Below, in pieces: positions 18,716-60,844 of a stretch of DNA of 64,000 nt (position 1 is the stretch's first letter; each line of letters opens with the position of its first letter). This DNA comes from Sporosarcina sp. PTS2304 (GTDB taxonomy: Bacteria; Bacillota; Bacilli; Bacillales_A; Planococcaceae). Under the pieces are notes generated by a model. That model was not told the DNA's origin and made no database searches. It saw only the letters and a program-made list of their open reading frames with translations. The stretch spans positions 3,200,501 through 3,264,500 of the forward strand of contig NZ_CP031230.1 in assembly GCF_003351785.1 (NCBI RefSeq), in the 5' to 3' direction. Made by a program: the position numbers and the translations under genes.

Positions 18716-18836
18716 CGCTCATAGAATGCGCGCGTCCGCTCATAGAGTGCGTCGAAGCGCTCATAGAGTGCGCGCGACCGCTCATAGAGTACGTTGAAGC
18801 GCTCATAGAACCCACGCGACCGCTCATCGAATCCAC
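18716..18836 (+). repeat. 21-bp tandem repeat cluster 1 (CGCTCATAG type, 6 copies)
   Basis: CGCTCAT starts at 18716, 18737, 18758, 18779, 18800 and 18821, an exact 21-bp period. The last copy is degenerate (CGCTCATCG). Variable 12-bp stretches separate the CGCTCATAG cores. Both strands stay open only because 21 is a multiple of three. It lies between the cheV terminator and the next co-oriented gene. Confidence 0.9.
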
Positions 18837-18959
18837 ACCACATCCGAAAAACATAAGCAAAAGGAACCAATTTCAATACGTTGCGTAGACTAGGCAGGGC
18901 GGGGCTAGTGGAATCTGTTAAAATAATGGGTAAAACTAGAATATGGACGGGTGAGTGTG

Positions 18960-19661
18960 ATGGTGGAGCGAATATTGATTGTGGAAGATGAAGAAAGTAT
19001 TGCGCGTGTGTTGCAACTGGAGTTGGAGTTTGAGAAGTATGAGACGGGAATTGCGCATACGGGGACGGATGGGTTAATTTTGTTTCGGGAGCAGTCGTGG
19101 GATTTGGTGTTGTTGGATTTGATGTTGCCCGGGCTGAATGGTTTGGATGTGTTGCGGCGGATTCGATCGCATGATTCTGATACGCCGGTGTTGTTGCTGA
19201 CAGCGAAAAATGATGTGGAGGATAAGGTCAAAGGGCTGGATCTCGGGGCGAATGATTATATTACGAAACCGTTTGAGATTGAGGAATTATTGGCGCGGAT
19301 TCGTACGGCGTTGCGTGTGGCGGGGCATGATAAGTCAACGCAGGGAGATCCCGATTTGCTGGAGTTTGCAGATTTGTCGCTACACCAGTTGTCGCGGGAT
19401 GTGACGCGTGGCGGTCATCCGATAGAATTGACGCCGCGGGAATTTGATTTGTTGCAACATTTATTGAAGCATCCGAATCAAGTGTTAACGCGAGAGCAGT
19501 TGCTAGATGCGGTGTGGGGATATGATTACTACGGCGATACGAATGTTGTCGATGTGTATATTCGGTACGTGCGCAAGAAAATAGATGTAGGGGAAGTACC
19601 GCTTATTCAGACGGTGCGCGGTGTCGGCTATGTGCTGAAGGAGCCGGTGCATGAAGCTTAA
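18960..19661 (+). CDS. OmpR-family response regulator (YkoG-like)
   Basis: A 233-residue two-component regulator. The receiver (about 1-115) has the acidic pair in LIVEDEE, the phosphoacceptor Asp in LVLLDLMLPG (about 53), Thr in LLLTAKND and Lys in YITKPFE. The winged helix DNA-binding domain (about 135-230) shows LTPREFDLLQHLL and VDVYIRYVRKKI. ATG at 18960 is preferred over GTG at 18951 because GGGTGAG then has normal spacing. The kinase gene overlaps by 11 nt. A PepSY gene follows, as in the Bacillus ykoGHI group. The target promoter is unknown. Confidence 0.9.
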   Translation: MVERILIVEDEESIARVLQLELEFEKYETGIAHTGTDGLILFREQSWDLVLLDLMLPGLNGLDVLRRIRSHDSDTPVLLLTAKNDVEDKVKGLDLGANDYITKPFEIEELLARIRTALRVAGHDKSTQGDPDLLEFADLSLHQLSRDVTRGGHPIELTPREFDLLQHLLKHPNQVLTREQLLDAVWGYDYYGDTNVVDVYIRYVRKKIDVGEVPLIQTVRGVGYVLKEPVHEA

Positions 19662-20988
19662 GACGAAAATTCATCTGTTTTCGACGGTGCTGATGCTCTG
19701 TATTTTGACGCTAAGTAATATAGGAATTTATTTCATTTTTAAGCAGTTGGCGTTTACGACGGAATATCAGCAGTTGATCCATCGGTCGAAGGAATTGACG
19801 GAAGGGTTGAGCCGCGTACAGGATGAGGATGAGGTCGGGGATGTATTGCGGACTTACATTAATCCTGAGAGCTTGCTGCGAATAGTGGATCAGGACGGGC
19901 AGATTCTCAAAACTACACAGTCTACGAATGAGTTGAAAAGCTATACACCGACGTTTGACGAGGGTGCTGATTATACGATTGGCATGGTGCAAGGGGCAGC
20001 GGTGATGATGACGCGTGTGCCGATTATTTATACAGACGGCGATATTGCCTATGTGGAAATAGTGCAGTTGCTGCGGGATTCGAGTCGTAGTTTACGTTTG
20101 CTGAAGTTCATCTTATTCGGTGTGACGGTGCTTGCGATGGTTCCGATTACGTTGTCGAGTATGACGCTCGGGAAAGTGTTGATTCAGCCGATTAAGAAGT
20201 TGATTGCGACGATGCGTGCCAGTCGGAGGTCAGGGAAGTATGAAAAGTTGGTAGCTTCTGAGGGAAAGGACGAGTTGGCGGAAATGAGCCAGACGTTCAA
20301 TGAAATGATGGAGCAGTTGGAGCAAAATTATCATAAGCAGGAAATGTTCGTGTCGAATGCTTCTCATGAATTGAAGACACCGCTGACGATCATGGAAGGC
20401 TATGCGCGGTTACTGAAGCGCCGCGGTTTTGATAATCGGCAAGTGGCGGACGAAGCAGTGACCGCCATTTTGAATGAAACGGGCCGGATGAAAGAGTTGA
20501 TCGAGCAAATGCTGCAGTTAGCGAAGACTAAGGATCCGCTAGCATTTACTTTTTCGCAAGTGGATATTAATCAGCTGATCGATGAAGTGATCGAGCCGTT
20601 GCGCGTGTCGTCTGGACGAGACATTCAGTTTGTGTGGGAAGGGCGGCTGCCGGCTTCCACGGATGAAAAACGATTGAAACAATTGCTGTTCATTTTATTG
20701 GATAATGCGAGGAAGTACAGTGAGGGGGAAATTATTGTACGCGCCATGCTGGAGGAGCGTGCAATTGTGATCGAAGTGGAAGATGCGGGTGAAGGAATTG
20801 ATGAGAAGCATTTGCCGCATTTATTCGACCGCTTTTATCGTGTACAGGAAGACCGTGCGCGTAAAACAGGAGGCACGGGGCTGGGCTTGTCGATTGCCAA
20901 AGATGTAGCGGACGGCATACGCGCACAATTGCAAGTGGAAAGTGGGCGTGGACAAGGAACGACGATGCGTATTATACTGCCTCGATGA
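19651..20988 (+). CDS. Sensor histidine kinase (YkoH-like)
   Basis: A 445-residue membrane kinase. Two membrane segments (about 8-30 and 150-172) enclose an extracytoplasmic domain of about 120 residues. A HAMP linker follows (about 173-226). HisKA has the phosphorylatable His in NASHELKTPL (about 239). HATPase_c has LDNARKYS, DAGEGI, FDRFYR and GTGLGLSI. It is translationally coupled to the response regulator. The following PepSY protein is probably a target or accessory of this pathway. The signal is unknown; relatives often respond to cell-envelope or metal stress. Confidence 0.9.
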   Translation: MKLKTKIHLFSTVLMLCILTLSNIGIYFIFKQLAFTTEYQQLIHRSKELTEGLSRVQDEDEVGDVLRTYINPESLLRIVDQDGQILKTTQSTNELKSYTPTFDEGADYTIGMVQGAAVMMTRVPIIYTDGDIAYVEIVQLLRDSSRSLRLLKFILFGVTVLAMVPITLSSMTLGKVLIQPIKKLIATMRASRRSGKYEKLVASEGKDELAEMSQTFNEMMEQLEQNYHKQEMFVSNASHELKTPLTIMEGYARLLKRRGFDNRQVADEAVTAILNETGRMKELIEQMLQLAKTKDPLAFTFSQVDINQLIDEVIEPLRVSSGRDIQFVWEGRLPASTDEKRLKQLLFILLDNARKYSEGEIIVRAMLEERAIVIEVEDAGEGIDEKHLPHLFDRFYRVQEDRARKTGGTGLGLSIAKDVADGIRAQLQVESGRGQGTTMRIILPR

Positions 20989-21042
20989 TTCTCATGGAAC
21001 TCTAATGATAGGGTGATATATTCATAGAAAGAGGTGAGTGTG

Positions 21043-21756
21043 ATGGGTTGGTTGAAAAAGCCTTTAGTGTTGACTGTTATCATAGCGATAGTCGTTGTGG
21101 CGGGCGGCAATTGGTATATCAAACAAATGACGCAAGAGGAGACAGTGCCTATAGAAGAAGTGAAAATGCGCTTAGAGTCGATGTATCAGGGCAGTGTGGA
21201 GCAGCTGACCGATGCGGACGTAGAGTATCAAGCGGAAATTTTGCGAAATGGTGCGTTGTATAGCGCGACGGTGGATCGCAAGACGGGAAAGGTGAAAACG
21301 CTGGAATTGCTGAAGAAAGCAGAGCCGACAGTCGTTGTAAAGTCTGAACCCGAGAAGCCGATAGAAAAGCCTGCCAACGAGCCGGTGGAGGAACCAGTTA
21401 CTCCGAATGAAAAGCTACCTGTTATAGAAAAGCCTGCATCCCAACCGGTTTCTGAAAAGCCCATAGAGAAGCCGAGACCACAACCGGTTCCTGCACCTAT
21501 TGAAAAACCAAAGCCACAACCCCAGGAAAAGAAACAGTCGGTCGTTTTGACGGAGCAACAAGCGATTGCGATTGCGCTCGGACGCCTTCATGCGAAAGTG
21601 CCGGTTGAAGTGGATGATGTGGATTTTGTCCCGACGCAACAGGGAGGCTATTATTTGGTAGAGTTGGATCTCGATACGGATGCGGAATTGGATGAAGTCG
21701 TGTACCAAATCCATGCGATTTCGGGGAAAATCATGTCGGAGAGTTGGGATGATTGA
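21043..21756 (+). CDS. Membrane-anchored PepSY-domain protein (YkoI-like)
   Basis: A 237-residue protein. One N-terminal membrane anchor (VLTVIIAIVVVAGGNWYI) is followed by an extracytoplasmic PepSY-like segment (about 35-90). A long linker of Glu-Lys-Pro units (about 100-165, repeated EKP and PQP) leads to a second PepSY domain (about 172-237, beginning LTEQQAIAIALGRL). The rigid charged linker may span the cell wall. ATG at 21043 is chosen because GAGGTGAG (21032-21039) suits it better than the GTG at 21034. It lies 54 nt after the kinase gene and probably belongs to that operon. PepSY domains are thought to inhibit proteases or scavenge signals. Confidence 0.8.
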   Translation: MGWLKKPLVLTVIIAIVVVAGGNWYIKQMTQEETVPIEEVKMRLESMYQGSVEQLTDADVEYQAEILRNGALYSATVDRKTGKVKTLELLKKAEPTVVVKSEPEKPIEKPANEPVEEPVTPNEKLPVIEKPASQPVSEKPIEKPRPQPVPAPIEKPKPQPQEKKQSVVLTEQQAIAIALGRLHAKVPVEVDDVDFVPTQQGGYYLVELDLDTDAELDEVVYQIHAISGKIMSESWDD

Positions 21757-21774
21757 GGAGGATGGTGTTCGTTT

Positions 21775-21990
21775 AGAAGTTGGAGTGGGGTACGTGACTC
21801 TTCTTTCTTGGTGCAGAAAAATGATGTACGTGTGAGGATTCTCCCGAGAGAAACCGGACGCGTCCCCTCCGGAAAGCGTATCGTCTGGAAGCGCAAGCCG
21901 CATGACATTCTAAGTCAGCCTTGCTCCATCTACTAAACGAACATAAAGTACCTGACAAGTCCAATAGTTTTCATCACATATAAAGAGTGA
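21775..21990 (+). repeat. Single copy of the dispersed inverted-repeat element
   Basis: GAAGTTGGAGTGGGGTA, GAGGATTCTCCC and ACCGGACGC match the start of the 54.4-55.6 kb repeat unit. GCGTCCCCTCCGGAAAGC and the following roughly 40 bases (21860-21925) match 55,950-56,010 in the same orientation. AAAGAGTGATCAAACGGTC at about 21979 recurs near 55,766 with one change. It is a mosaic copy of the family between the PepSY and glycerate kinase genes. Confidence 0.75.
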
Positions 21991-22075
21991 TCAAACGGTC
22001 TTGCGGTCTTTTCCGCATAGTAGATGACTGTAAAGACCCTTTCTGCTACACTACGAACAAAGGGAGTGGGAAGCC

Positions 22076-23200
22076 ATGAAAGTGATCATTGCGCCGGATG
22101 CATTTAAGGGGAGTTTGACAGCGAAAGAAGCGGCCCACGCGATGAAACGAGGTATAGAACATGTCTTTTCGGATGCTACTATCATCTGCTTGCCTATCGC
22201 AGACGGTGGCGAAGGGACGCTGGAGGCCTTGGTTTCTGCAACGAATGGACGGTATAAAGAAACGATCGTGCAAGATCCGCTCGGACGTTTGATCCCAGCG
22301 AAGCTTGGTGTGCTTGGCGATGGAAAGACGGCTGTAGTGGAGCTGGCGCAAGCATCGGGTATTACGTTGCTGGCGGAAGAAGAGTTGGATCCGTTGAAAG
22401 CTTCGACGTATGGCACGGGCGAGTTGATACGTTTTGCGCTGGATGAAGGTTATCGCAAATTGATCATCGGGCTCGGTGGCAGTGCGACGAATGATGGGGG
22501 CACCGGAATGCTTGAGGCGCTCGGGGTGCGTTTTTTTGACGCGGCGGGCAGATTGTTGAAAATGAATGGCGGGGCGCTGTCATTGATCGCTTCAATCGAT
22601 GACACGGAGTTAGATGAGCGCTTGCATAGTACACAAATAGTAGTAGCTTCAGATGTTGAAAATCCGTTAGTAGGAAAAACCGGTGCAACATCTATTTTTG
22701 GTCCGCAAAAAGGGGTGAAGCAGGCTATGATTGAGCCTTTGGATGCTGGTATGCGACACTTTGCGGATGTAACTGAGCGGCTAAAAGGTAAGCGTTTGCA
22801 TGATCTTCGTGGTGCTGGTGCAGCAGGTGGCAGTGCAGGGGCGTTGGTTGCCTACTGCGACGCTGAAGTAGCAAGTGGGATTGAGGTGGTGCTAGAAGCT
22901 ATAGGTTTTGCAAAGCATCTTTCATCCGTCGATTTTATCGTCACAGGGGAAGGGAAGACCGATCGGCAGACGCTTAACGGTAAGGCGTTGCTCGGCGTAG
23001 CGAAGCTGGCAAAAGACTATAAAGTGCCGGTGTACGTCATTTCGGGTTCTGTTGAAAAAGAAGCGCTCGATCCACTAGGTGAATGGTTTACGGGACTGGA
23101 TGAGTTGAATGATGGTCGCCCGGTAGCTGAATTGATGGTGAATGCTTCAGAAATTTTGAGGCAAAAGACAGAGGAAATTTTCTCGGATAGGCATATGTAA
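22076..23200 (+). CDS. glxK: Glycerate 2-kinase (GK-I family)
   Basis: A 374-residue kinase that phosphorylates D-glycerate, feeding glyoxylate or serine-derived carbon into lower glycolysis. Family landmarks are APDAFKGSLTA (N-terminus), IADGGEGTLEA (about 41-51), GLGGSATNDGGTGMLEA (about 131-147), AAGGSAGALVAYC (about 246) and TGEGKTDRQTLNGKA (about 285-299). Full length is normal. GGGAGTGG precedes the ATG. The symporter gene 40 nt later may be co-transcribed. A 2-hydroxyacid dehydrogenase at 48.6 kb could supply glycerate. Confidence 0.9.
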   Translation: MKVIIAPDAFKGSLTAKEAAHAMKRGIEHVFSDATIICLPIADGGEGTLEALVSATNGRYKETIVQDPLGRLIPAKLGVLGDGKTAVVELAQASGITLLAEEELDPLKASTYGTGELIRFALDEGYRKLIIGLGGSATNDGGTGMLEALGVRFFDAAGRLLKMNGGALSLIASIDDTELDERLHSTQIVVASDVENPLVGKTGATSIFGPQKGVKQAMIEPLDAGMRHFADVTERLKGKRLHDLRGAGAAGGSAGALVAYCDAEVASGIEVVLEAIGFAKHLSSVDFIVTGEGKTDRQTLNGKALLGVAKLAKDYKVPVYVISGSVEKEALDPLGEWFTGLDELNDGRPVAELMVNASEILRQKTEEIFSDRHM

Positions 23201-23239
23201 GCTGCGAGTAGGGTAGGTAAAAACTAAGGAGGTGGTCAT

Positions 23240-24664
23240 ATGATTCAAAGTGCTTTAGATTGGCTGGTAGGTCCGGCGAATAATTTCATTTGGACATATA
23301 TTTTAATTGGACTATTATTGGTTGCAGGTGTTTATTTTACGATTCGTACGAAGTTTGTACAAGTGCGTTTATTTGGTGAAATGTTCCGTTTGATTGTGGA
23401 GAAAAAAGATAATAACGATGGTGTGTCTCCGTTCCAGGCATTTACGATCAGTGCGGCATCACGTGTCGGTACGGGCAACGTGGCAGGAGTAGCTCTTGCG
23501 ATTGGAATTGGTGGACCGGGCGCGGTATTTTGGATGTGGATCATTGCGGTGATCGGCATGGCGACGGCGTTCATTGAGAGTACGCTTGCACAAGTGTATA
23601 AAGTGAAGGATGGAGATACATTCCGTGGAGGACCGGCGTATTATATGCAAAAAGCGCTCGGGCAACGGAAGTTAGGGATTGCCTTCGCGATTTTATTGAC
23701 GATGTGTTTCGGATTTATTTTTAACGCGGTGCAATCGAATACGATCAGTCAGTCGTTCTCGGATGTTTTTGGAATTCCTCACTGGACGATTGGTATCGGT
23801 TTAATCGTCTTGACAGCTATTATTGTGTTTGGTGGCGTCAAGCGGATTGTCAAAGTGACGCAGACGATCGTACCTGTGATGGCAACATTTTATATTATTG
23901 TGGCATTATTTATCGTCGTGACGAATATTACGCAAGTACCGGCAATGATCATGCTGATTTTTGAACATGCATTCGGTATCAAGGAAATCGTTGGCGGAGG
24001 AATCGGAATGGCGATCATGCAAGGGGTTCGTCGAGGTCTTTTCTCCAATGAAGCTGGTATGGGTAGTGTGCCGAACGCAGCAGCGACGGCAAACGTCTCG
24101 CATCCAGCCAAACAAGGGCTCGTGCAAAGTTTAGGTGTGTTTTTCGATACGATCATCATTTGTTCTGCGACAGCGTTCATCATTTTACTCGGCGGATTGT
24201 ATGAGACGGGCGAGTCGAATGGTATTTTGCTGACGCAAGCCTCGATGGCGGTTCACGTAGGGGCATGGGCACCGTATTTCATCGCAGTGGCGATTATGTT
24301 CTTCGCCTTTAGTTCGATAATCGGAAACTATTATTATGGTGAAACGAATATTGAATTTATCAATGCAAATAAAGGATGGAAGTTAGTCTATCAGCTTCTC
24401 GTGCTGGCTATGGTATTTTTCGGGGCTGTAGCAAAAGTACAAGTCGTGTGGGATATGGCTGATTTATTTATGGGACTTATGGCGATTCTGAACTTAGTAG
24501 TCATCTTGGTTCTTGGGAAAGTGGCGTTTAAAGTATTGGACGATTTCACTGTCCAACGACGGGCTGGGAAAAATCCTGTCTTTAAAGCGTCCAGTATACC
24601 AGGACTAAAAGGTGCGGAATGTTGGGAAGATACACCGAGTCAACCTGAACATCGTATTCAATAA
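23240..24664 (+). CDS. Sodium:alanine/glycine symporter (AGCS family)
   Basis: A 474-residue integral membrane protein with about 11 hydrophobic segments that couples uptake of small neutral amino acids to sodium. Family landmarks are SAASRVGTGNVAGVALAIG (about 74-92), GPGAVFWMW (about 92-100) and SNEAGMGSVPNAAA (about 270-283). AAGGAGGTGG before the ATG is a strong binding site. Alanine, glycine and glutamine transporters cannot be told apart by eye. Confidence 0.9.
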   Translation: MIQSALDWLVGPANNFIWTYILIGLLLVAGVYFTIRTKFVQVRLFGEMFRLIVEKKDNNDGVSPFQAFTISAASRVGTGNVAGVALAIGIGGPGAVFWMWIIAVIGMATAFIESTLAQVYKVKDGDTFRGGPAYYMQKALGQRKLGIAFAILLTMCFGFIFNAVQSNTISQSFSDVFGIPHWTIGIGLIVLTAIIVFGGVKRIVKVTQTIVPVMATFYIIVALFIVVTNITQVPAMIMLIFEHAFGIKEIVGGGIGMAIMQGVRRGLFSNEAGMGSVPNAAATANVSHPAKQGLVQSLGVFFDTIIICSATAFIILLGGLYETGESNGILLTQASMAVHVGAWAPYFIAVAIMFFAFSSIIGNYYYGETNIEFINANKGWKLVYQLLVLAMVFFGAVAKVQVVWDMADLFMGLMAILNLVVILVLGKVAFKVLDDFTVQRRAGKNPVFKASSIPGLKGAECWEDTPSQPEHRIQ

Positions 24665-24717
24665 TAAAAAAGTGTGCATCTCGGACGGACGTTTAAAAAA
24701 GTTCACATACGATCTTT

Positions 24718-24816
24718 TAGTCAACGTCCAAAAAGTTTGCTATACTTAACCGTACGACTGGAAAAATTATCGCATCGTAGTCCAGAAGAATGATTCTGGC
24801 TACGATGGTTTTTTTC
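24718..24816 (+). ncRNA. Promoter-hairpin unit: possible small RNA or detached terminator
   Basis: TATACT at 24741-24746 is a good -10, with a weak -35 (TAGTCA). About 30 nt later CATCGTAG-T-CCAGAA and TTCTGG-C-TACGATG form a long stem (24773-24807) followed by TTTTTTT. This could be the terminator of the symporter gene lying over 100 nt downstream, or a stand-alone transcript of about 60 nt. No reading frame fits. Confidence 0.4.
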
Positions 24817-24832
24817 TGCTTTACAACAACTA

Positions 24833-24881
24833 CCACAACATGTTAGGGTAGTACATGAACATAACACACTATATATAGTAT
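24833..24881 (+). promoter_or_regulatory. Two NrdR-like boxes upstream of the RNR operon
   Basis: ACACTATATATAGTAT (24866-24881) closely fits the NrdR box, and CCACAACATGTTAGGG (24833-24848) fits more loosely. Their centres are 33 bp apart, close to the usual three helical turns. NrdR with ATP/dATP represses RNR genes from such tandem boxes. They overlap the likely start of the riboswitch transcript. Confidence 0.6.
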
Positions 24882-25045
24882 TTTGATGAATCGGTACCGA
24901 TCACGGTTTAAAAGGGAATCCGCTAAAAACGGAGCTGTCCCCGCAACTGATGGCATAGACGACTATCTTGATAACCACTGCTTAGCGCGGGAAGGAGAGA
25001 TGGGAGGGTGATATGCCAGCCAGGAGACCTGCCATTCATTCAAGC
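24882..25045 (+). promoter_or_regulatory. Cobalamin riboswitch
   Basis: Canonical elements occur in order: GGTTTAAAAGGGAATCC, GAGCTGTCCCCGCAACTG (the B12-box region), CCACTG, GCGGGAAGG and GCCAGCCAGGAGACCTGCC. The ends TTGATGAAT and ATTCATTCAA pair as P1. It precedes an attenuator and the nrdE gene, so adenosylcobalamin should switch off this B12-independent reductase. A B12-dependent class II enzyme elsewhere in the genome is implied. Confidence 0.95.
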
Positions 25046-25133
25046 ATACATTCTTCGGGGATTGGAGAGTGGAAGCCGCAAGCAGAGGATTTCTATCTGC
25101 TGAACAACTTCCATTTTTATCCATTAATTTATG

Positions 25134-25166
25134 ACGACTCCTGAAGCGATCTGGAGTCTTTTTTTA
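25134..25166 (+). terminator. Riboswitch expression-platform terminator
   Basis: GACTCC (25136-25141) and GGAGTC (25153-25158) form the stem, followed by TTTTTTT. It lies between the aptamer and nrdE, as expected for transcription attenuation by bound cobalamin. A second hairpin AGCAGA/TCTGCT at 25081-25101 may take part in the switch. Confidence 0.8.
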
Positions 25167-25193
25167 CATACTTTTTAAAGGGAGCGGATGCAA

Positions 25194-27416: not shown

Positions 27417-27841
27417 TCGCCTACGCTTCGTGGAGCGGCAACACCGAAGAAGTAGCGGAGTTGATTGCTGAAAATTTAAGCCGGGAAGGGGTCGCTGTCG
27501 ATACGCATCGTATTGGCATAGGCGCCTTACCCGATGTACATGAATATGACGCGTTTTGCATTGGTTCCTTTACATGGGAAAAAGGAGCCACACCTGACGA
27601 AGTGAAAGATTTCGTGGCGGATATCGGGTATAAACCTGAAACGGTCTATGTTTTCGGTACAGGAGACACGCAATTCGGCGGCGATGAATTATTTTGTAAA
27701 GCGGCCGAAAAATTGGCACGCTTCTATGATTCACCGTTTGAACCGCTGAAAGTCGAACAAAGCCCACGCGGCAAACAAGAGCAAATCGTAACGAATTGGA
27801 CGAAAGGAGTGCTCGACCATTGGCGACACTTACAAGAGTAA
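27404..27841 (+). CDS. Flavodoxin in the NrdI position
   Basis: A 145-residue flavodoxin-fold protein. The FMN phosphate loop is YASWSGNTEEVAE (about 6-18), followed by GSFTWEKGATPDEV (about 55) and FGTGDTQFGGDELFCKA (about 84-100), the usual flavodoxin FMN loops. It lies between the RNR alpha and beta genes and overlaps both, the place NrdI takes in class Ib operons, where NrdI provides superoxide to load the Mn2-tyrosyl cofactor. The sequence resembles ordinary flavodoxin more than typical NrdI. GTG at 27404 is chosen for spacing to GAGGAG. Confidence 0.75.
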   Translation: MSFLIAYASWSGNTEEVAELIAENLSREGVAVDTHRIGIGALPDVHEYDAFCIGSFTWEKGATPDEVKDFVADIGYKPETVYVFGTGDTQFGGDELFCKAAEKLARFYDSPFEPLKVEQSPRGKQEQIVTNWTKGVLDHWRHLQE

Positions 27842-28857: not shown

Positions 28858-28871
28858 GTCAATGAAAGAAG

Positions 28872-28904
28872 GAAGGAAGTGCGAAATAGCGCTTCCTTTT
28901 TTGT
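28872..28904 (+). terminator. Terminator of the RNR operon
   Basis: GGAAGTGC and GCGCTTCC pair around GAAATA, followed by a TTTTTT run. Confidence 0.8.
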
Positions 28905-28929
28905 CGTGGGGAAGTAGAAGGTTTATTTG

Positions 28930-29255
28930 CGCTCATAGCGATTGTGCTTCCGCTCATAGAAGTGGTCTCCGCGCTCATAGCGATTGTGCTTCCGCTCATA
29001 GAAGTGGTCTCCTCGCTCATAGCGATTGTGCTTCCGCTCATAGAAGTGGTCTCCTCGCTCATAGCGATTGTGCTTCCGCTCATAGAAGTGGTCTCTGCGC
29101 TCATAGCGATTGTGCTTCGGCTCATAGAAATGGCCTTTGCGCTCATAGCGAGTGTATTTCCGCTCATAGAAGTGGCCTTTGCGCTCATAGCGATTGTGCT
29201 TCCGCTCATAGAAGTGGTCTCCGCGCTCATAGCGAGTGTATTTCCGCTCATAGAA
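28930..29255 (+). repeat. 21-bp tandem repeat cluster 2 (16 copies)
   Basis: CGCTCAT (with one variant, GGCTCAT) occurs every 21 bp from 28930 to 29245. Alternate copies are more alike, giving a 42-bp higher-order unit (CATAGCGATTGTGCTTC, then CATAGAAGTGGTCTC). It fills the interval between the nrdF terminator and the terminator of the converging CoA-transferase gene. Confidence 0.95.
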
Positions 29256-29265
29256 AACACCCAAC

Positions 29266-29306
29266 CAACAAAAAAGCGAGCAGACATCATCGTCTGCTCG
29301 CTTCTA
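29266..29306 (-). terminator. Terminator of the CoA-transferase gene
   Basis: On the minus strand AAGCGAGCAGAC and GTCTGCTCGCTT form a perfect 12-bp stem around GATGAT, followed by TTTT. Confidence 0.85.
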
Positions 29307-29318
29307 CATCCTATCCAA

Positions 29319-43792: not shown

Positions 43793-43798
43793 GGGCGT

Positions 43799-44037
43799 TA
43801 TGATCGCGTGTGGGTAGTCTATGAGCGGAGATCGCGTTTCTATGATCGCGTGTGGGTAGTCTATGAGCGGAGATCGTGTTTCTATGATCGCGTGTGGGTA
43901 GTCTATGAGCGGAGATCGCGTTTCTATGATCGCGTGTGGGTAGTCTATGAGCGGAGATCGCGTTTCTATGATCGCAAGTGTGCATTCTATGAGCGCATCC
44001 CACATTTCTATGAGCGACTCCCCCACTTCCATGATCA
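43799..44037 (-). repeat. 21-bp tandem repeat cluster 3 (12 copies, inverted orientation)
   Basis: TATGAGCG or TATGATCG recurs every 21 bp from 43799 to 44030; on the minus strand this is the CGCTCATA core of the other clusters. A 42-bp higher-order unit is again clear. It lies between moaB and the terminator of the converging moaC gene. Confidence 0.95.
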
Positions 44038-44065: not shown

Positions 44066-44101
44066 TAAAAAACGCGCGGGGGATTAGTCCGCGCGCGTGT
44101 A
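44066..44101 (-). terminator. Terminator of moaC
   Basis: On the minus strand ACGCGCGCGG and CCCCGCGCGT pair around ACTAATC (one mismatch), followed by a TTTTTT run. The stem overlaps the moaC stop codon. The plus strand lacks a comparable T run. Confidence 0.8.
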
Positions 44102-49592: not shown

Positions 49593-49642
49593 AGTAGATA
49601 TGTAAAACCGCGCAAGAAAGAGGCCGGGACATACCTTGCAGA

Positions 49643-49679: not shown

Positions 49680-49872
49680 GTAGCCATTAGTAATTATCTT
49701 TTGAAACATCAGAGTGTACCCGAGCGGAAAAATACAGACAAGCAAAGATATGCTCTCAATACGTCGCTTATGCCCGTGAAAGCCCTACTTTGCAACGACT
49801 TTTCCTGTGAGGTTTAGCGCAAGAGACCCCACAGAAGCGCAGAGAAGTGGATTCGTCATGTTCCAGCCTCTT
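49680..49872. other. Gene-free interval
   Basis: No supported gene, terminator or repeat between the mo operon terminator and the end of the tetR-type gene. Confidence 0.4.
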
Positions 49873-50748: not shown

Positions 50749-50778
50749 AGTCTATCACCTGTATCTATTTGAATTGTT

Positions 50779-50802
50779 TATACTAACGGTATATCTAGTA
50801 TA
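50779..50802. promoter_or_regulatory. Candidate TetR operator palindrome
   Basis: TATACTA and TAGTATA form perfect 7-bp inverted arms with a 10-bp spacer, positioned 31-54 bp before the regulator start. Size and symmetry suit a TetR dimer. Confidence 0.55.
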
Positions 50803-50855
50803 GTAACTCGAAAAAGCTTTTATATCAACTAATTTTGACCTCCGATATTTTTTAG

Positions 50856-50884
50856 TTGAATTAATTAGACTATAGGTATAAAAT
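50856..50884 (+). promoter_or_regulatory. Candidate promoter of the efflux gene
   Basis: TTGAAT at 50856-50861 and TAAAAT at 50879-50884 with a 17-bp spacer, 40 bp before the ATG at 50924. Confidence 0.5.
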
Positions 50885-50923
50885 AAGTTTCTGCTCATAT
50901 TTATAAGTTTACAGGAGGATATT

Positions 50924-52414: not shown

Positions 52415-52417
52415 AAT

Positions 52418-52463
52418 TGAAAGCTCCGTGTGCCTCAACGCATGCGGAGCTTCTTTTTTTTGT
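52418..52463 (+). terminator. Terminator of the efflux gene
   Basis: GAAAGCTCCG with TGTGC and GCATG with CGGAGCTTC pair around CTCAAC, followed by a long T run. Confidence 0.85.
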
Positions 52464-52485
52464 GTTATAGTAAAAAGAAAAGGTT

Positions 52486-54345: not shown

Positions 54346-54408
54346 GTTCTACGCCATTGCGGCGGGTCGTCTGTTCGACTCGTTGCGGTGGCTTTTTCGT
54401 GTTTGTCC

Positions 54409-54690
54409 TGAAGTTGGAGTGGGGTAAGTGACTTCTCCAGTGCGGTGCAGAAAAGTTGTGTACGTGTGAGGATTCTCCCTGCAGAACCGGACGCTTTCCT
54501 GAGGGGGCGCGGCGGACTCGCCAGAAGTGCGTTGGCGATTACGCCTGTCAAGTGCTAAAATGTGCTCCTTCTCGCTGCGCTTCACTCGCAAAAGCCGTCC
54601 TTCGCCACGGCTTTCCCTGAACCTCTAGGAGTCGCCGGTTCTTCCGGGAGAATCCTTGAGTTTGTGTCGGGAAGTCAGTTCGTGTTCGGC
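54409..54690 (+). repeat. Long-type first unit of the 218-bp repeat array
   Basis: Begins GAAGTTGGAGTGGGG like the later units and ends in the same CAGTTCGTGTTCGGC. It carries about 64 extra bases in the middle (about 54550-54613, including CTCCTTCTCGCTGCGCTTCA). The extra segment is also present, inverted, near 55,840-55,905. Confidence 0.85.
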
Positions 54691-55564
54691 CAGAAGTTGG
54701 AGTGGGGTAAGTGACTTCTCCTTTGCAGTGTAGAAAATGAGTATACGTGCTAGGATTCTCCCTACAGAACCGGACGCTTTCCTGAGGGGACGCGGCGGAC
54801 TCGCCAAAAGTGCGTGGCGATTACGCCTGTCGTCCTGATCCTCCAGGAGTCGCCGGTTCTTCCGGGAGAATCCTTGAGTTTGTGTCGGGATGTCAGTTCG
54901 TGTTCGGCCAGAAGTTGGAGTGGGGTAAGTGACTTCTCCTTTGCAGTGTAGAAAATGAGTATACGTGCTAGGATTCTCCCTACAGAACCGGACGCTTTCC
55001 TGAGGGGACGCGGCGGACTCGCCAAAAGTGCGTGGCGATTACGCCTGTCGTCCTGATCCTCCAGGAGTCGCCGGTTCTTCCGGGAGAATCCTTGAGTTTG
55101 TGTCGGGATGTCAGTTCGTGTTCGGCCAGAAGTTGGAGTGGGGTAAGTGACTTCTCCTTTGCAGTGTAGAAAATGAGTATACGTGCTAGGATTCTCCCTA
55201 CAGAACCGGACGCTTTCCTGAGGGGACGCGGCGGACTCGCCAAAAGTGCATTGGCGATTACGCCTGTCGTCCTGATCCTCCAGGAGTCGCCGGTTCTTCC
55301 GGGAGAATCCTTGAGTTTGTGTCGGGATGTCAGTTCGTGTTCGGCCAGAAGTTGGAGTGGGGTAAGTGACTTCTCCTTTGCAGTGTAGAAAATGAGTAGA
55401 CGTGCTAGGATTCTCCCTACAGAACCGGACGCTTTCCTGAGGGGACGCGGCGGACTCGCCAAAAGTGCATTGGCGATTACGCCTGTCGTCCTGATCCTCC
55501 AGGAGTCGCCGGTTCTTCCGGGAGAATCCTTGAGTTTGTGTCGGGATGTCAGTTCGTGTTCGGC
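54691..55564 (+). repeat. Four near-identical tandem repeats of 218-219 bp
   Basis: Units start at 54691, 54909, 55127 and 55346 with CAGAAGTTGGAGTGGGG; a degenerate start follows at 55565. They differ at only a few bases (for example GTGCGTGG versus GTGCATTGG). In each, AGGATTCTCCC...AGAACCGG and CCGGTTCT...GGGAGAATCCT form inverted ends of a 123-bp hairpin-capable element (first one 54752-54874). The long minus-strand frame across them is a by-product, without a binding site or protein-like composition. Confidence 0.95.
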
Positions 55565-55765
55565 CAGAAAGAGGAGTAGGGTAAGTTACGCTTCCTGAAC
55601 AGTATGGGTGAGCTTTGTATTGCCTGGCTGAATGCATATGTAGTCATTTCTTTTTCCACTCAGTTCATCGAAACAGTCATAGTAGCTAGCAACACTTCAC
55701 CGCTATCTAAATTCAAAAGCGGCCAGATTGTATCAGACAACTCTACTTGGTTTTCACTATCTACA

Positions 55766-56012
55766 AAGAGTGATCAAACTGTCTTGCACACACAAAGTCC
55801 GGCTGGAGCTTACAGACGATCGACTCCGGGAGGTTCAGGAAAAGCCGTTGCGAAGGACGGCTTTTGCGAGTGAAGCGCAGCGAGAAGGAGCACATCTTTG
55901 CACTTGACAGGTGTAACTCGCAACGCACTTTTGCGAGGTCCACCGCGTCCCCTCCGGAAAGCGTATCGTCTGGAAGCGCAAGCCGCAAAACACTCCCAAT
56001 CAGCCTTACTCC
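55766..56012 (-). repeat. Inverted long-type copy of the repeat element
   Basis: The minus strand from about 55,955 down to 55,820 repeats the long unit at 54,515-54,640, including the aligned CTCCTTCTCGCTGCGCTTCA and CACTCGCAAAAGCCGTCCTT segments. The side near 55,950-56,010 matches the copy at 21.9 kb. The array is thus bounded by inverted long-type copies. Confidence 0.85.
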
Positions 56013-56151
56013 ATTCAGCCCCCTACTTTCATGAACGAACAAGATCCATCGGAATAACTCGCACAATAAAGGAATACTATAGTACATTGTCGAACAACTC
56101 TAATAGAAGCAAGAAACGAAAAACTACTTATAGTTGAAAGGGGCAGGAAAA

Positions 56152-57627
56152 ATGAAACTTACCAACTACATCGACGGTACATGGCAAAAAGAGGCGGCGA
56201 ATTATACCGCCGTACGAAACCCAGCGAACGGAGAAGAACTCGCACAAGTACCGCTATCCACAGAACAAGACGTACAACAAGCCGTAGCGGCAGCGAAGAA
56301 GGCGCAGAAGAAATGGACATTGGTACCGGCGCCGAAACGTGCGGATTACCTATACGACATTGGCCGTCTTATGAAAGAAAAAAAAGAACACTTGGCGCAA
56401 GTACTGACGAAAGAAATGGGTAAAGTAATAGAAGAAGCGCGCGGCGAAGTGCAAGAAGGAATCGACATGGCATTTTATATGGCAGGCGAAGGGCGTCGGC
56501 TATTTGGAGAAACTGTGCCTTCTGAGTTACAAGATAAATTCGCGATGAGTGTGCGTGCGCCAATCGGTGTCGTCGGCTTAATCACACCGTGGAACTTTCC
56601 GATTGCGATCGCCACGTGGAAATCATTCCCGGCAATTGTGGCTGGCAATACATTTATTTGGAAACCAGCAACAGAAACTCCACTCATGGCGTATGAAATG
56701 TCATTGATCTTTGAAGAAGTAGGACTGCCGAAAGGGGTAGCGAATATTGTCTTCGGTTCAGGTGCAGATGTTGGGACGGCACTCATTGAACATCCAGATG
56801 TGCGTGTTATTTCCTTTACCGGCTCGACGGAAACAGGACGTCAGGTGGCGGAGCTCGGAGGTCGTCATTTGAAAAAAGTTTCATTGGAAATGGGTGGAAA
56901 GAATGCGGTCATCGTATTGGATGACGCAGACCTGGAATTGGCTGTGGAAGGGATTTTGTGGAGCGCGTTCGGAACTGCGGGCCAGCGTTGTACAGCGTGT
57001 AGTCGGGTCATCGTTCACGAAGCGGTTAAAGAACAGCTAGAAGAACGATTGATAGAAAGTATGAAAGATTTGACGATGGGTGACGGACTGGATGAATCAG
57101 TGAAAGTAGGACCCGTCATCAATGCGAAAGCGCTTGAAAAGATTGAGAGTTATATAGAAATTGGCAAGCAAGAAGGTGCGAAACTAGTAGCAGGCGGTCG
57201 CGTGCTGAATGAAGGAGCATTCGCCAATGGTCATTATTTCGAACCAACACTGTTTACAGATGTAGCATGGGATAGTCGTTTGGCACAGGAAGAAATTTTC
57301 GGTCCGGTCGTGTCGCTCATTACGGTGAGCAGTTTGGATGAAGCAATTGAAGTGAACAACAGTGTAGCGTATGGCCTGTCGAGTTCGATCTTCTCGCAAG
57401 ACGTCAATAACGTATTCCGTGCGCAAAGAGATCTCGATACAGGTATTGTCTATATTAACGCTGGAACGACGGGAGCGGAAATTCATTTGCCGTTTGGCGG
57501 AACAAAAGGTACAGGGAATGGACACCGTGACTCAGGAGTGGCAGCGCTCGATGTCTTTACGGAATGGAAAAGCATTTACATCGATTACAGCGGGAAATTG
57601 CAGCGTGCCCAAATCGATACGGAGTGA
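56152..57627 (+). CDS. Aldehyde dehydrogenase, probable aminoadipate-semialdehyde dehydrogenase
   Basis: A 491-residue NAD(P)-dependent aldehyde dehydrogenase. [13 protein letters not shown] (about 143), [16 protein letters not shown] (about 223), the general base Glu in [11 protein letters not shown] (about 246), the nucleophile Cys in GQRCTACSR (about 280) and [10 protein letters not shown] are present. ATG at 56152 follows AAAGGGGCAGG. The next gene encodes lysine 6-dehydrogenase, whose product is 2-aminoadipate semialdehyde or its cyclic imine, so oxidation to 2-aminoadipate is the likely reaction. Other aldehydes cannot be excluded. Confidence 0.88.
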
Positions 57628-57651
57628 CTTACAGGAAGAAGGGATGAGCAG

Positions 57652-58794
57652 ATGAGAGTTGTCGTATTAGGCGCAGGATTAATGGGAAAAGAAGTCGTTC
57701 GAGATTTAGTCAAGCACGATGAAGTGAAGAAAGTCTATTTGGCGGACCGGGCGATTAGGCAAGCGGAAGATTTCGCAGAGCAATTACTTTCCGACAAGCT
57801 CGATATACTCTTGCTGGATGCTAGGAACGATGTGCAATTGAGTGACGTCATAGGACTTGGGGATATTGTAGTTAACGCACTATTTTACACATTCAATGAA
57901 AAAGTCGCTCGCTTAGCCGTTGAGCGAGGGGTTCATGTCGTAGATCTCGGCGGTCATATCGGCGGAGCGACAGATAAAGTACTCGCTCTTCATGAACAAG
58001 CAGTGGAACGAGGTGTCACGCTCATTCCGGATTTGGGCGTAGCGCCTGGCATGATCAATATTTTAGCGGGGTACGGTGCCTCTACACTGGATACGACTGA
58101 ATCTATCAAGCTGTATGTAGGGGGCGTTCCTGTTCATCCAGAACCTCCGCTGAACTACAATTTGGTCTTTTCATTGGAAGGATTATTCGATCATTATACA
58201 GATACTTCCCGTGTCATTCGTAACGGAGAAGTCGTGGAACTGCCTTCATTATCTGAAGTGGAGCTTCTAGAATTCGATGGCTACGGCACAATGGAAGCGT
58301 TCCATACATCAGGCGGCACGTCGACATTGCTGGAGTCGTTCCCTGCCATCGAGACGCTGGAATACAAGACGATTCGTTATCCGGGACATGCAGAAAAGAT
58401 GAAAGTATTAGTCGACTTAGGCTTATTGTCAAGGGAATCCACTATTCAAGTAGACGGCAAACCGTTGCGTGTACGTGACGTCATGCTGGAACATCTGACA
58501 CCGCAATTGCGTCTAGGAAACAAACCAGACGCGGTCTTATTGCGTGTCATCGTCAGTGGCATAAAAGACGGACAGCCAAAAGAAATTACATTCAATATGA
58601 TTACGGAAAAAGACCAAACAATCAATGAAACAGCGATGGCACGTGCGACGGCTAATACGATTTCCGTAGTCGCGCAAATGATCGGCAACGAAGTCATTAC
58701 GAAACGCGGAGCCTATCCACCCGAACATATCGTGCCGGGGGGTCTCTATATAGAAGAAATGAAAGCACGCGGTGTCCGAATCGAGGAATCGTAA
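57652..58794 (+). CDS. L-lysine 6-dehydrogenase / saccharopine dehydrogenase-family protein
   Basis: A 380-residue oxidoreductase with Rossmann start [17 protein letters not shown] (about 3-19) and the saccharopine dehydrogenase C-terminal domain, including [13 protein letters not shown] (about 102), [18 protein letters not shown] (about 126) and [14 protein letters not shown] (about 221). Length and sequence agree with the lysine 6-dehydrogenase of Geobacillus, which deaminates lysine at the epsilon carbon with NAD+. It lies 24 nt after the aldehyde dehydrogenase gene, a functional pair for lysine breakdown. Confidence 0.85.
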
Positions 58795-58823
58795 CAACCG
58801 ACAGCAGAGAGTAGTGAATATAG

Positions 58824-59423
58824 ATGGACAAACAACTAGATCAGACGAAGTTATTCCTCCAGCCGCTCGCGCCGGAAAGTAACGGAGTAGAACCGCTATT
58901 TTCTCAGGTCACACGGGACTTCGGGAGGTTCGCGCATATTCCACGTTTCATGATGCGTTCAGCGATGAAAAAAGGGATACTCCACGCTGTACTTCTAACA
59001 GATGGCATGGAAGAATTCGGATATGCGATCTATCAGTACGTTCCCGACTATGAAGGAATCCATATCATTTATTTGGCGATTAATCCGTCCTATCGTTCAC
59101 ACGGTTTAGGCGGTTTATTGCTCGAACGGTTGAATGCATCGTTTCCCGCGGGCTTATTGCTGGAAGTAGAAGATCCCGAGCATGCGAAAAATGATGAAGA
59201 TGCTTTGATTAGTCATCGTCGCATCGCCTTTTATGAGCGCAACGGATTGCATTTGAAAAATGGCGTGAAGTTATCGAATTTCGGTCATCCGTTATTGCTA
59301 ATGACTAGTCAGGAACTGCCAGAATTGAACGAACAGCAATTTCGTACGTTTTACCAAACACTCTGCAACCGTGTCTATAGATTGCCGTTGCTTTCTCTTG
59401 CGGTAAAAGTAACGTATGAGTAG
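58824..59423 (+). CDS. GNAT-family acetyltransferase
   Basis: A 199-residue N-acetyltransferase. The acetyl-CoA-binding block is LAINPSYRSHGLGGLLLERL (about 90-109), where R-S-H-G-L-G is the RxxGxG/A loop. FYERNGLHL (about 136) is the usual GNAT motif B. It sits inside the lysine catabolic operon 29 nt before an acyl-CoA dehydrogenase gene, so its substrate may be lysine or an intermediate, but this is inference. Confidence 0.8.
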   Translation: MDKQLDQTKLFLQPLAPESNGVEPLFSQVTRDFGRFAHIPRFMMRSAMKKGILHAVLLTDGMEEFGYAIYQYVPDYEGIHIIYLAINPSYRSHGLGGLLLERLNASFPAGLLLEVEDPEHAKNDEDALISHRRIAFYERNGLHLKNGVKLSNFGHPLLLMTSQELPELNEQQFRTFYQTLCNRVYRLPLLSLAVKVTYE

Positions 59424-59452
59424 AAGGTATATTGTAAAGGAGGACGTAAAAA

Positions 59453-60646
59453 ATGGACTTTACATTTACAGATGAACAAAACATGTTGCGAAAAACAGCT
59501 AGACAATTCGTTGATACTGAAATCATGCCCCATATTGCAGATTGGGATGCGCAAGGAAGTTTCGACCCGGCCATTTGGAAACGACTTGCAGAATTAGGTT
59601 TTATGGGGATTTGTATTCCTGAGAAATATGGCGGTAGTGGAATGGATTATAATTCATTGGCCATATTATGTGAGGAGTTGGAACGTGGCGACACCGCGTT
59701 CCGTACAGCGGTTTCCGTTCATATCGGACTGAATTCGATGACATTGATGCAGTGGGGAACAGAAGAGCAGAAACAACGATACTTAGTGCCGCAAGCGAAA
59801 GGCGAGAAGGTTGGAGCGTTTGGATTAACTGAGCCTGGCGCCGGGTCTGACGTATCGGCAATCCAGACGACTGCAGTGCGTGACGGAGAAGAGTATGTCA
59901 TAAACGGGCAGAAGACGTGGATTTCATTATGTGATTTTGCAGATCATTTCCTCGTCTTTGCCTATACCGACAAATCAAAGAAACACCACGGCATTAGCGC
60001 GTTTATCGTAGAGCGTACGATGCCAGGCTTTTCATCAAAAGCAATTAAAGGAAAGTATGGCATTCGTTCAGGCAATACAGGAGAATTGTTTTTTGAAGAC
60101 GTGCGCGTACCTGTCGCGAACTTAGTCGGAGAAGAAGGCGAAGGATTTAAAATTGCGATGGCGGCACTCGATAATGGAAGATTCACTGTAGCTGCGGGTG
60201 CGGTCGGTTTGTTGAATGCCTGTCTTGAAGCAAGTATAGACTACGCGAAAACACGTGAAACGTTCGGAAAGAAAATCGGCGATCACCAACTCGTTCAGCA
60301 AATGCTCGCAAAAATGGAAGCAGGCTACCAAATGAGCCGACTTCTCGTCTATCGAGCGGGCGAATTGAAAAATAAAGGAATTCGCAACACGCGCGAAACG
60401 TCTTTAGCGAAATGGCAGGCATGTGATTTCGCCAACCAAGCAGCAGACGACGCAGTGCAAATACATGGAGCGTACGGCTATTCAGACGATTTCCCAGTCG
60501 CGCGCTACTTACGAAACTCCAAAGCTCCCGTAATTTACGAAGGAACTCGAGAAATCCACACGATCATGCAAGCGGAGTATATACTAGGAGAACGCAGCGA
60601 TAAAAAGCTCAATCGCATGTTACCTACGTGGCCGTTTGACGAATAA
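59453..60646 (+). CDS. Acyl-CoA dehydrogenase, probably glutaryl-CoA dehydrogenase
   Basis: A 397-residue FAD enzyme. Signatures are AFGLTEPGAGSDVSAIQT (about 122), the FAD-binding GIRSGNTGELFFEDVRVP region and IHGAYGYSDDFPVARYLR (about 342). The catalytic Glu is in VIYEGTREIHT (about 363). FRTAVSVHIGL contains Arg84, aligning with the Arg that binds the glutaryl carboxylate in glutaryl-CoA dehydrogenase (FRSAMSVQ-type block). Together with lysine 6-dehydrogenase upstream, this suggests the route lysine to aminoadipate to glutaryl-CoA to crotonyl-CoA. AAAGGAGG precedes the ATG. Confidence 0.85.
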   Translation: MDFTFTDEQNMLRKTARQFVDTEIMPHIADWDAQGSFDPAIWKRLAELGFMGICIPEKYGGSGMDYNSLAILCEELERGDTAFRTAVSVHIGLNSMTLMQWGTEEQKQRYLVPQAKGEKVGAFGLTEPGAGSDVSAIQTTAVRDGEEYVINGQKTWISLCDFADHFLVFAYTDKSKKHHGISAFIVERTMPGFSSKAIKGKYGIRSGNTGELFFEDVRVPVANLVGEEGEGFKIAMAALDNGRFTVAAGAVGLLNACLEASIDYAKTRETFGKKIGDHQLVQQMLAKMEAGYQMSRLLVYRAGELKNKGIRNTRETSLAKWQACDFANQAADDAVQIHGAYGYSDDFPVARYLRNSKAPVIYEGTREIHTIMQAEYILGERSDKKLNRMLPTWPFDE

Positions 60647-60664
60647 GCGAATGGTCGAGAAACA

Positions 60665-60710
60665 CAAAAAATGCAGGAACGGTGAACATTGCCGTTCCTG
60701 CATTTTTTAT
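60665..60710. terminator. Strong bidirectional terminator
   Basis: AAAAAATGCAGGAACGG and CCGTTCCTGCATTTTTT form a perfect 17-bp stem around TGAACATTG. Confidence 0.95.
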
Positions 60711-60729
60711 GTGCATGTATAAGTAAATG

Positions 60730-60844
60730 CGCTCACAGCCTCCGCGCTTCCGCTCATAGAGTCCGTGTTTGCGCTCATAGCCTCCGCACTTCCGCTCATA
60801 GAGTCCGTGTTTGCGCTCATAGCCTCCACGTCCACACTCAAAAA
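60730..60844 (+). repeat. 21-bp tandem repeat cluster 4 (6 copies)
   Basis: CGCTCA starts at 60730, 60751, 60772, 60793 and 60814, and a degenerate CACTCA at 60835, again exactly 21 bp apart with a 42-bp superperiod. It lies between the acyl-CoA dehydrogenase terminator and the converging SDR gene. Confidence 0.9.

What the first reader, a model, noticed from the sequence alone, without database searches (positions are those of the whole stretch)
18716..60844. Exact 21-bp-period CGCTCATAG repeats in four intergenic clusters
Clusters at 18.7, 28.9, 43.8 and 60.7 kb hold about 6, 16, 12 and 6 copies of CGCTCATAG spaced exactly 21 bp, with 12 variable bases between and often a 42-bp superperiod. 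Three clusters lie between convergent genes, next to terminators; one is inverted. Two helical turns per unit would place every core on one DNA face, fitting an array of sites for a DNA-binding protein or an architectural or replication/segregation role. Sequence between cores varies from cluster to cluster while the core is kept, so selection on the core is likely.
Basis: seen in the sequence. Interest (0 to 1): 0.8.

Follow-up and report, generated by a model that had tools for sequence, protein, structure and literature searches.

The report
Phased repeat arrays that catch transposons
Between its genes, this Sporosarcina-type bacterium carries rows of a short DNA word spaced two turns of the helix apart, and in its genome two unrelated kinds of jumping gene are found only inside such rows, which makes the rows look like a natural safe landing strip for transposons.

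Summary
In detail: four intergenic arrays of CGCTCATAG at 21-bp spacing (30 exact cores, 0.34 expected). The genome, of Sporosarcina type, has 577 exact CGCTCATAG-N12-CGCTCATAG pairs. New findings: (1) The arrays are landing pads. All 8 copies of one IS256 element and all 9 of one IS66 element in the genome sit in arrays, which make up about 0.35% of the DNA. Five of 8 IS66 target duplications start at one register, CGCTC|ATAG. (2) In relatives, some orthologous gene ends carry arrays of other sequence but the same 20-21-bp period, and relatives of both elements sit in such arrays. (3) A degenerate motif, CGCTCAWAG, is shared by 38 hand-picked arrays. (4) Of 31 placed arrays, 27 point along replication, as do 14 of 15 between convergent genes. 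(5) They are not translated: 20-bp steps break the frame. What they do for the host is unproven; I favour a phased array of sites for a DNA-binding protein. Closest known kind: REP/BIME repeats as IS targets, but these are not palindromic.

The parts
18716..18829 (+). array 1: 6 units (5 exact cores), 21-bp spacing, after the CheV-like gene (17744-18649)
28930..29253 (+). array 2: 16 units (15 exact cores), 42-bp superperiod, between convergent NrdB-like and acetyl-CoA hydrolase/transferase genes
43819..44016 (-). array 3: 10 units, CGCTCATAG alternating with CGATCATAG, between convergent MoaB-like (PF00994) and MoaC genes; degraded unit beyond at 43798-43806
60730..60822 (+). array 4: 5 units (4 exact cores), between convergent acyl-CoA dehydrogenase and short-chain dehydrogenase genes
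28875..28900 (+). intrinsic terminator-like hairpin of the upstream gene, 30 bp before array 2
   Evidence: crude detector
29272..29301 (-). terminator-like hairpin of the convergent gene, after array 2
   Evidence: crude detector
44069..44095 (-). terminator-like hairpin of the MoaC gene, 53 bp before array 3 in the array's own direction
   Evidence: crude detector
60672..60706 (+). terminator-like hairpin, 24 bp before array 4; it also reads on the - strand
   Evidence: crude detector

Best explanation
These are intergenic tandem arrays of a non-palindromic DNA site (CGCTCATAG here, CGCTCAWAG as the wider consensus) placed every two helical turns, mostly just behind gene ends. Shown: one IS66 clade and one IS256 clade use them as landing pads, and in this genome all copies of the two elements are in arrays. 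Shown: IS66 mostly enters at one register, CGCTC|ATAG. Inferred: the arrays are kept because a DNA-binding protein occupies the phased cores side by side on one face, as a boundary at gene ends that is polar with respect to replication. Inferred: the two transposases either read the core themselves (likely for IS66, given its register) or follow the protein-covered array (possible for IS256, which has no fixed register and enters arrays of different sequence). Inferred: landing there spares genes, so host and element both tolerate it.
For: Genome-wide family, 577 exact pairs and 0 for the reversed pattern. The core recurs in arrays that were not found through it: 6 of 6 by periodicity, 17 of 17 IS loci. 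Neighbour spacings with no array rule: 21 (462), 20 (27), 24 (2), 30 (1), 31 (1), 42 (3) of 496. 17 of 17 IS copies in arrays, 16 with cores on both sides, target duplications read for 13. IS66 register: 5 of 8 at unit position 6. Outside this genome, IS256 relatives of at least 55% identity are beside 20/21-type arrays at 16 of 22 loci read, against 2 of 27 for relatives of at most 50% and 3 of 234 control 3-kb windows. IS66 relatives of at least 58%: 2 of 2; at most 52%: 1 of 26, that one far from the element. Orthologous ends of three genes: 26 of 90 loci show a strong period, always 20 or 21. Shared motif in 23 divergent arrays: score 149 against 115 +/- 3, largest 119.5, in 30 shuffles. 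Orientation along replication 27 of 31.
Against: No binding protein was identified. At orthologous sites arrays come and go: the nearest relative, G194, has arrays at the array-1 and array-2 sites but none at the array-4 site, so no single array is essential. Six of 22 IS256 relatives outside this genome are not in 20/21-bp arrays; one of them, L327, is in a 52-bp array. Orientation was judged from GC skew, not from a mapped origin, and for 31 arrays, not all. In tandem gene pairs alone the replication bias is weak (11 of 14, p 0.06), and 5 of 14 arrays there run against both genes.
Confidence: 0.5

Rival explanations
1. Neutral or selfish satellite DNA: units multiply by replication slippage and unequal crossing-over, no host protein is involved, and the IS elements merely tolerate or exploit spare DNA.
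For: Units turn over fast between species at one site. Arrays are present or absent at orthologous sites. Arrays are homogenised in 42-bp pairs. Orientation along replication is also what strand-dependent slippage would give. An identical 385-bp array piece between two IS256 copies occurs at 2.47 and 3.13 Mb, so recombination spreads array pieces.
Against: Neutral homogenisation acts within an array; it does not by itself keep nine bases alike between separate arrays whose spacers differ, and the core recurs in arrays found without it. Steps of 19, 22 and 23 bp are absent in the stretches read. The motif persists across genera.
Confidence: 0.3
2. Supercoiling sinks: the arrays are preferred wrapping or cutting sites for gyrase between convergent genes, as reported for BIME-2 in E. 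coli, and transposition follows that topology.
For: 15 of 31 placed arrays lie between convergent genes against 36 of 206 intergenic gaps in the sampled stretches. The helical phasing would suit a wrapped DNA. REP elements bind gyrase and attract IS elements (passages of PMC1525189).
Against: 14 of 31 lie between tandem genes. A simple wedge model gives no unusual intrinsic bend (mean 55.7 degrees per 84 bp against 52.0 for shuffled units of the same period, parameters recalled). Gyrase binding was not testable here.
Confidence: 0.1
3. RNA-level signal: read-through RNA carrying the C-rich array strand acts as a back-up termination or Rho-loading site.
For: Arrays follow a terminator on the same strand within 100 bp at 16 of 31 places by a crude detector. 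By eye, a terminator also precedes one array each in Bhargavaea (L048), Planococcus (L052), Metabacillus (L078) and S. obsidiansis (L037), but not at L050 or L053.
Against: In convergent gaps the orientation follows replication, not one of the two genes at random (14 of 15). Five of 14 arrays in tandem pairs run against both genes. Constant DNA helical spacing is not needed in RNA. No Rfam family matches the window arrays.
Confidence: 0.08
4. Protein-coding repeats of seven codons.
For: 21 is a multiple of 3, and reading frames stay open through the arrays.
Against: 27 steps of 20 bp break the frame; other genomes show 18-, 19- and 20-bp steps. Many arrays lie behind terminators.
Confidence: 0.01

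Closest known systems
REP elements / BIMEs as targets of insertion sequences (IS1397, IS621, ISPpu9/10, ISPa11 and others; PMC1525189: abstract and passages read)
   Same: High-copy intergenic repeats that particular IS elements of several families, IS256 among them, enter selectively.
   Different: REPs are palindromes, and in BIMEs they alternate in orientation. Here the unit is not palindromic, all units of an array point one way, and the spacing is two helical turns. IS66 has 0 occurrences in that paper's main text.
Short tandemly repeated repetitive (STRR) sequences of cyanobacteria (recalled, not looked up)
   Same: Tandem intergenic repeats.
   Different: Heptamer units there (recalled); here 20-21 bp with a fixed core and a free spacer.
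Iteron arrays (recalled)
   Same: Directly repeated sites in helical phase.
   Different: About 30 separate intergenic sites placed here, not one origin; no initiator gene was sought.
CRISPR arrays (recalled)
   Same: Repeat plus variable stretch.
   Different: 9-bp core and 12-bp variable part, variable parts duplicated in pairs, dozens of loci; cas genes were not sought.

Membership tests
REP/BIME | palindromic (stem-loop) unit | tested here: not met
   Core CGCTCATAG is not its own reverse complement, and the spacer is free, so the units share no constant inverted repeat
REP/BIME | units in alternating orientation | tested here: not met
   All units of one array point the same way in the arrays read
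REP/BIME | intergenic, at gene ends, high copy number | tested here: met
   577 pairs; 15 convergent, 14 tandem, 2 divergent gaps of 31
REP/BIME | target of specific IS elements | tested here: met
   17 of 17 copies of two IS elements
REP/BIME | binds gyrase, IHF or DNA polymerase I | not testable with these tools
   needs binding assays
REP/BIME | associated RAYT (Y1) transposase | not tested
   no search made
CRISPR | repeat of usual length with unique spacers | tested here: not met
   9-bp core; spacers repeat in pairs at 42 bp
CRISPR | adjacent cas genes | not tested
   no search made
protein-coding repeat | reading frame kept | tested here: not met
   27 of 496 neighbour steps are 20 bp
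IS256 family (inserted element) | IS256 transposase and 8-9-bp target duplication | tested here: met
   NF033543 E 6e-114; 5 of 8 copies with an 8- or 9-bp duplication, the other 3 without
IS66 family (inserted element) | IS66 transposase, accessory TnpA, 8-bp target duplication | tested here: met
   NF033517 E 5e-128 and NF047593 E 6e-8; 8 of 9 copies with 8-bp duplication
Rfam RNA family | match at gathering score | tested here: not met
   only a cobalamin riboswitch in the window

The most novel reading that the evidence does not exclude
A bacterial counterpart of protein-guided transposon safe havens: an unknown host protein coats gene-end arrays whose period is fixed by the helix while their sequence drifts, and transposases of two unrelated families follow the coated array rather than a DNA word. 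In G215, loci of one IS256 element lie in arrays built on AAAGAATGGACCC and on TTCTTGAGCGCGG.
Probability: 0.2. Interest if true: 0.85.

Novelty: new variant of a known kind. Interest (0 to 1): 0.68.

Why it matters
IS elements that spare genes by entering harmless repeats are known from palindromic REPs. Here the target is a different kind of repeat, used by two IS families at once, in a genus where the repeat sequence changes but the two-turn spacing recurs. That makes it possible to ask directly whether a transposase reads DNA sequence, DNA spacing or a bound protein. It also hands over a ready hunt for the protein that reads such arrays, and may explain why some assemblies of such genomes break at these places.

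Tried and rejected
Intrinsic DNA curvature as the shared feature: rejected, wedge-model bend no larger than in shuffled units (parameters recalled). Translation: rejected (20-bp steps). Known RNA: none on the window arrays. The beta-roll hits of ORFs over arrays (PF21300) are, I think, an artefact of periodic translation. Idea that the IS elements make the arrays: not favoured, because G194, a draft, has 435 pairs but no IS256 relative found and only IS66 relatives of 51% identity or less. Literature: searches for the core letters, for 21-bp tandem repeats in Sporosarcina, for tandem repeats between convergent genes in Bacillus, for repeats in Sporosarcina intergenic regions, for IS256-family target sites in tandem repeats, and for intergenic tandem repeats in Planococcaceae. 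I saw listings only, and only the top of the longer ones (20 of 158, 15 of 21, 0, 10 of 34, 3 of 3, 0, 10 of 248); none of the listed titles concerns this repeat. The library lacks most subscription journals, so this is weak evidence of novelty. Searches listed the REP papers; of these I read only the abstract and passages of PMC1525189. Limits of the counts: the 31 arrays are not all arrays, and came mostly from loci chosen by the core pattern; three edge arrays were dropped (by coordinates two point along replication, one does not). One search picked units by likeness to the core, so its core figures are inflated. The 38 arrays were delimited by hand, include several from one species (four from this window), and the real search ran up to 40 rounds against 20 in the shuffles. 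The orthologue tests read 30 loci per gene (the cap) of 62, 67 and 51 genomes with a match. The class-wide scan used one exact pattern and misses drifted arrays: 9 of 398 genomes, 6 of them in this family. Three of G215's six IS256 copies were not fetched. A distant full-length IS256 copy of this genome at 3.046 Mb (28% identity) was not looked at.
Full report
WHAT IS THERE. The window has 30 exact copies of CGCTCATAG where 0.34 are expected, in four arrays of 6, 16, 10 and 5 units (up to one mismatch) with 21-bp spacing and a 42-bp superperiod. Three arrays lie between convergent genes (NrdB-like/acetyl-CoA hydrolase-transferase, MoaB-like/MoaC, acyl-CoA dehydrogenase/short-chain dehydrogenase) and one between tandem genes (CheV-like/response regulator).

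WHOSE GENOME. The window is bases 3200501-3264500 of a 3,495,830-bp single-contig genome. Same-genus genomes have contigs whose lengths match records titled Sporosarcina (for example G194 with Sporosarcina sp. P13 and G182 with S. obsidiansis A15), so I take it as Sporosarcina (inference). It holds 577 exact CGCTCATAG-N12-CGCTCATAG pairs, 458 on + and 119 on -, and 0 for the reversed pattern. In the family, 20 of 261 genomes have at least one such pair; G194 has 435. In an even draw of 398 genomes of the class, 9 match a slightly looser pattern, 6 of them in this family.

ANATOMY. In 41 stretches of this genome (the window, 20 evenly placed or early 20-kb stretches and 20 chosen for arrays), same-strand neighbouring cores with up to one mismatch lie 21 bp apart 462 times, 20 bp 27 times, and 24, 30, 31 or 42 bp 7 times; 19, 22 and 23 do not occur, although no array rule was applied. 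In 44 array segments with 535 units the spacer positions carry 0.08-0.61 bits between arrays, and the core positions 1.7-2.0; the core figure is inflated because units were picked by likeness to the core. Two checks do not have that flaw. A detector of periodicity alone, run on stretches chosen without regard to arrays and on the window, found arrays of period 21/42/63 at L025, L032 and the four window sites, all six with this core; its other hits had other periods (18, 24, 28, 30, 45). A second L025 array, a second L032 array and one in L033 fell below its threshold. And all 17 array loci found through the IS elements carry exact cores.

PLACE AND DIRECTION. After removing IS elements, 31 arrays could be placed: 15 between convergent, 14 between tandem and 2 between divergent genes, against 36, 124 and 46 of 206 intergenic gaps of at least 60 bp in the sampled stretches. 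A crude detector finds a terminator on the array's own strand within 100 bp before it at 16 of 31. By GC skew the origin lies near 2.9 Mb and the terminus near 1.1-1.2 Mb. Arrays point along replication in 27 of 31 cases (two-sided p 3e-5), and in 14 of 15 between convergent genes (p 0.001), where gene direction cannot explain it. In tandem pairs it is 11 of 14 along replication (p 0.06) and 9 of 14 along the upstream gene. Three edge arrays were dropped; by coordinates two agree and one does not. In relatives, array strand matches the sign of local GC skew at 13 of 15 loci with skew beyond 0.02 (5 further loci set aside); local skew also follows genes, so this is weaker.

LANDING PADS. Many arrays are split by recurring genes. 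These are an IS66 element (2508 bp, transposase NF033517 E 5e-128, accessory TnpA) and an IS256 element (1385 bp, NF033543 E 6e-114). Genome-wide BLAST finds 8 IS256 and 9 IS66 copies, 99-100% alike. All 17 are in arrays: 16 with exact cores within 300 bp on both sides, and the 17th (L209) at an array end, with its duplication inside a core. Thirteen copies show a target duplication of 8-9 bp (5 of 8 IS256, 8 of 9 IS66). For IS66, 5 of 8 duplications start at unit position 6 (CGCTC|ATAG), one at 5, one at 1, one at 18; the four IS256 duplications placed have registers 5, 14, 15 and 7. Arrays make up about 0.35% of the genome (577 x 21 bp), and 0.13% of 19 stretches chosen without regard to them. 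Copies are not all independent: at 2.47 Mb two IS256 copies enclose a 385-bp array piece, and the identical piece lies between two IS256 copies inside a different array at 3.13 Mb with crossed duplications, which I read as recombination between IS copies carrying array pieces about. IS256 and IS66 remnants of other clades in the same genome, in L030, have no array in that stretch.

OTHER SPECIES. Downstream of the acetyl-CoA hydrolase/transferase gene (30 loci read), a periodicity detector is positive at 18, with units that differ between species: for example CTATGAGCGCGGGGTCGCTTT in G194, TAGAGCGG/TTGAGCGG-type units in G195, G197, G227 and G231, TTGGCTCGGTACGGCGCGGGA in G181, ACCGATCATA-type in G200, AAACGACTAAAG-type in G173 and G205. 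Four more (L216, L218, L223, L238) look array-like by eye only; at L229 (cut by a contig end), L230, L231, L235, L237, L240, L241 and L243 I saw none. With one test for all three gene ends (a 63-nt stretch at least 0.58 self-identical at some lag from 12 to 39), 14 of 30 loci pass here, 10 of 30 at the array-4 site and 2 of 30 at the array-1 site, where one locus had no 3' sequence. In all 26 the best lag is 20 or 21. G194 has arrays at the array-1 and array-2 sites but not at the array-4 site, so arrays are gained and lost. A motif search on 38 array consensus units gives CGCTCATAGA (score 297 against 174 +/- 4); on the 23 units without GCTCATA it still gives CGCTCAAAGa, score 149 against 115 +/- 3 (largest 119.5) in 30 shuffles.

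THE IS CLADES ELSEWHERE. IS256 relatives of at least 55% identity outside this genome lie beside 20/21-type arrays at 16 of 22 loci read: L245, L246, L248, L249, L251, L256, L257, L261, L262, L263, L267, L268, L270, L271, L324, L340. The six others are L247, L250, L266, L325, L326, and L327, which sits in a 52-bp tandem array. Relatives of at most 50% do so at 2 of 27 loci (L328, L344, both of 61-bp period), and 3 of 234 control windows of 3 kb show such a region, two of them known arrays of this genome. IS66 relatives of at least 58%: 2 of 2 (L295 one side, L296 both sides); of at most 52%: 1 of 26, and that region (L300) lies far from the element. Some of these loci are at contig ends, and some IS copies are short fragments. 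In G215, loci of one IS256 element lie in arrays of two different sequences.

HOW IT MOST LIKELY WORKS. Shown: place, period, landing-pad use, IS66 register, orientation bias among the arrays placed, turnover of unit sequence. Inferred: the fixed two-turn spacing with a kept core and free spacer is what a row of sites for a DNA-binding protein looks like; its polarity relative to replication suggests contact with, or a one-sided effect on, the replication machinery, or strand-dependent stability of the array. IS66 probably reads the core; for IS256, sequence reading alone is less likely. The neutral-satellite reading remains serious (0.3). Curvature, translation and known RNA were tested and not supported.

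COMPARISON. The nearest known kind is REP/BIME repeats as IS targets (PMC1525189, abstract and passages). These arrays work like that but are not REPs: the unit is not palindromic and orientation does not alternate. In the parts of the result lists that I saw no title concerns this repeat; this covers open-licence papers only and long lists only at their top.

Noticed in passing
window 24875-25050: Cobalamin riboswitch (RF00174, 94 bits).
   Followed up: no
window 54616-55586: 218-bp tandem repeat, 4.4 copies, 98% matches, overlapping a 291-aa ORF at 54762-55637 (-) with no Pfam family.
   Followed up: partly
window 1-10000: The first 10 kb has G+C 0.29-0.33 against about 0.41-0.53 in the rest, which suggests a foreign segment ending near 10 kb.
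   Followed up: no
L190 about 4594-7748 (genome 3131594-3134748) and genome 2468458-2471612: An identical 385-bp array piece between two IS256 copies at two distant places: IS-carried exchange of array pieces.
   Followed up: yes
L327 (G604): An IS256 relative (62%) sits in a 52-bp tandem array, about five helical turns; the preference may extend to other tandem arrays.
   Followed up: partly
IS66 element ends (GTAAGCGTCAAAAG): The terminal repeat resembles some array units, such as GCGTCCAAAG in G220; a transposase might bind arrays through likeness to its own end. Seen by eye only.
   Followed up: no
L028 2-1663 and L279 10322-11576: Periodic stretches of lag 15/30/45 in G000 and G228, probably a repeat protein gene.
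   Followed up: no
L043, L114, L115, L120 (Sporosarcina sp. P13): Several P13 contigs end inside or close to arrays, so arrays may break short-read assemblies.
   Followed up: no
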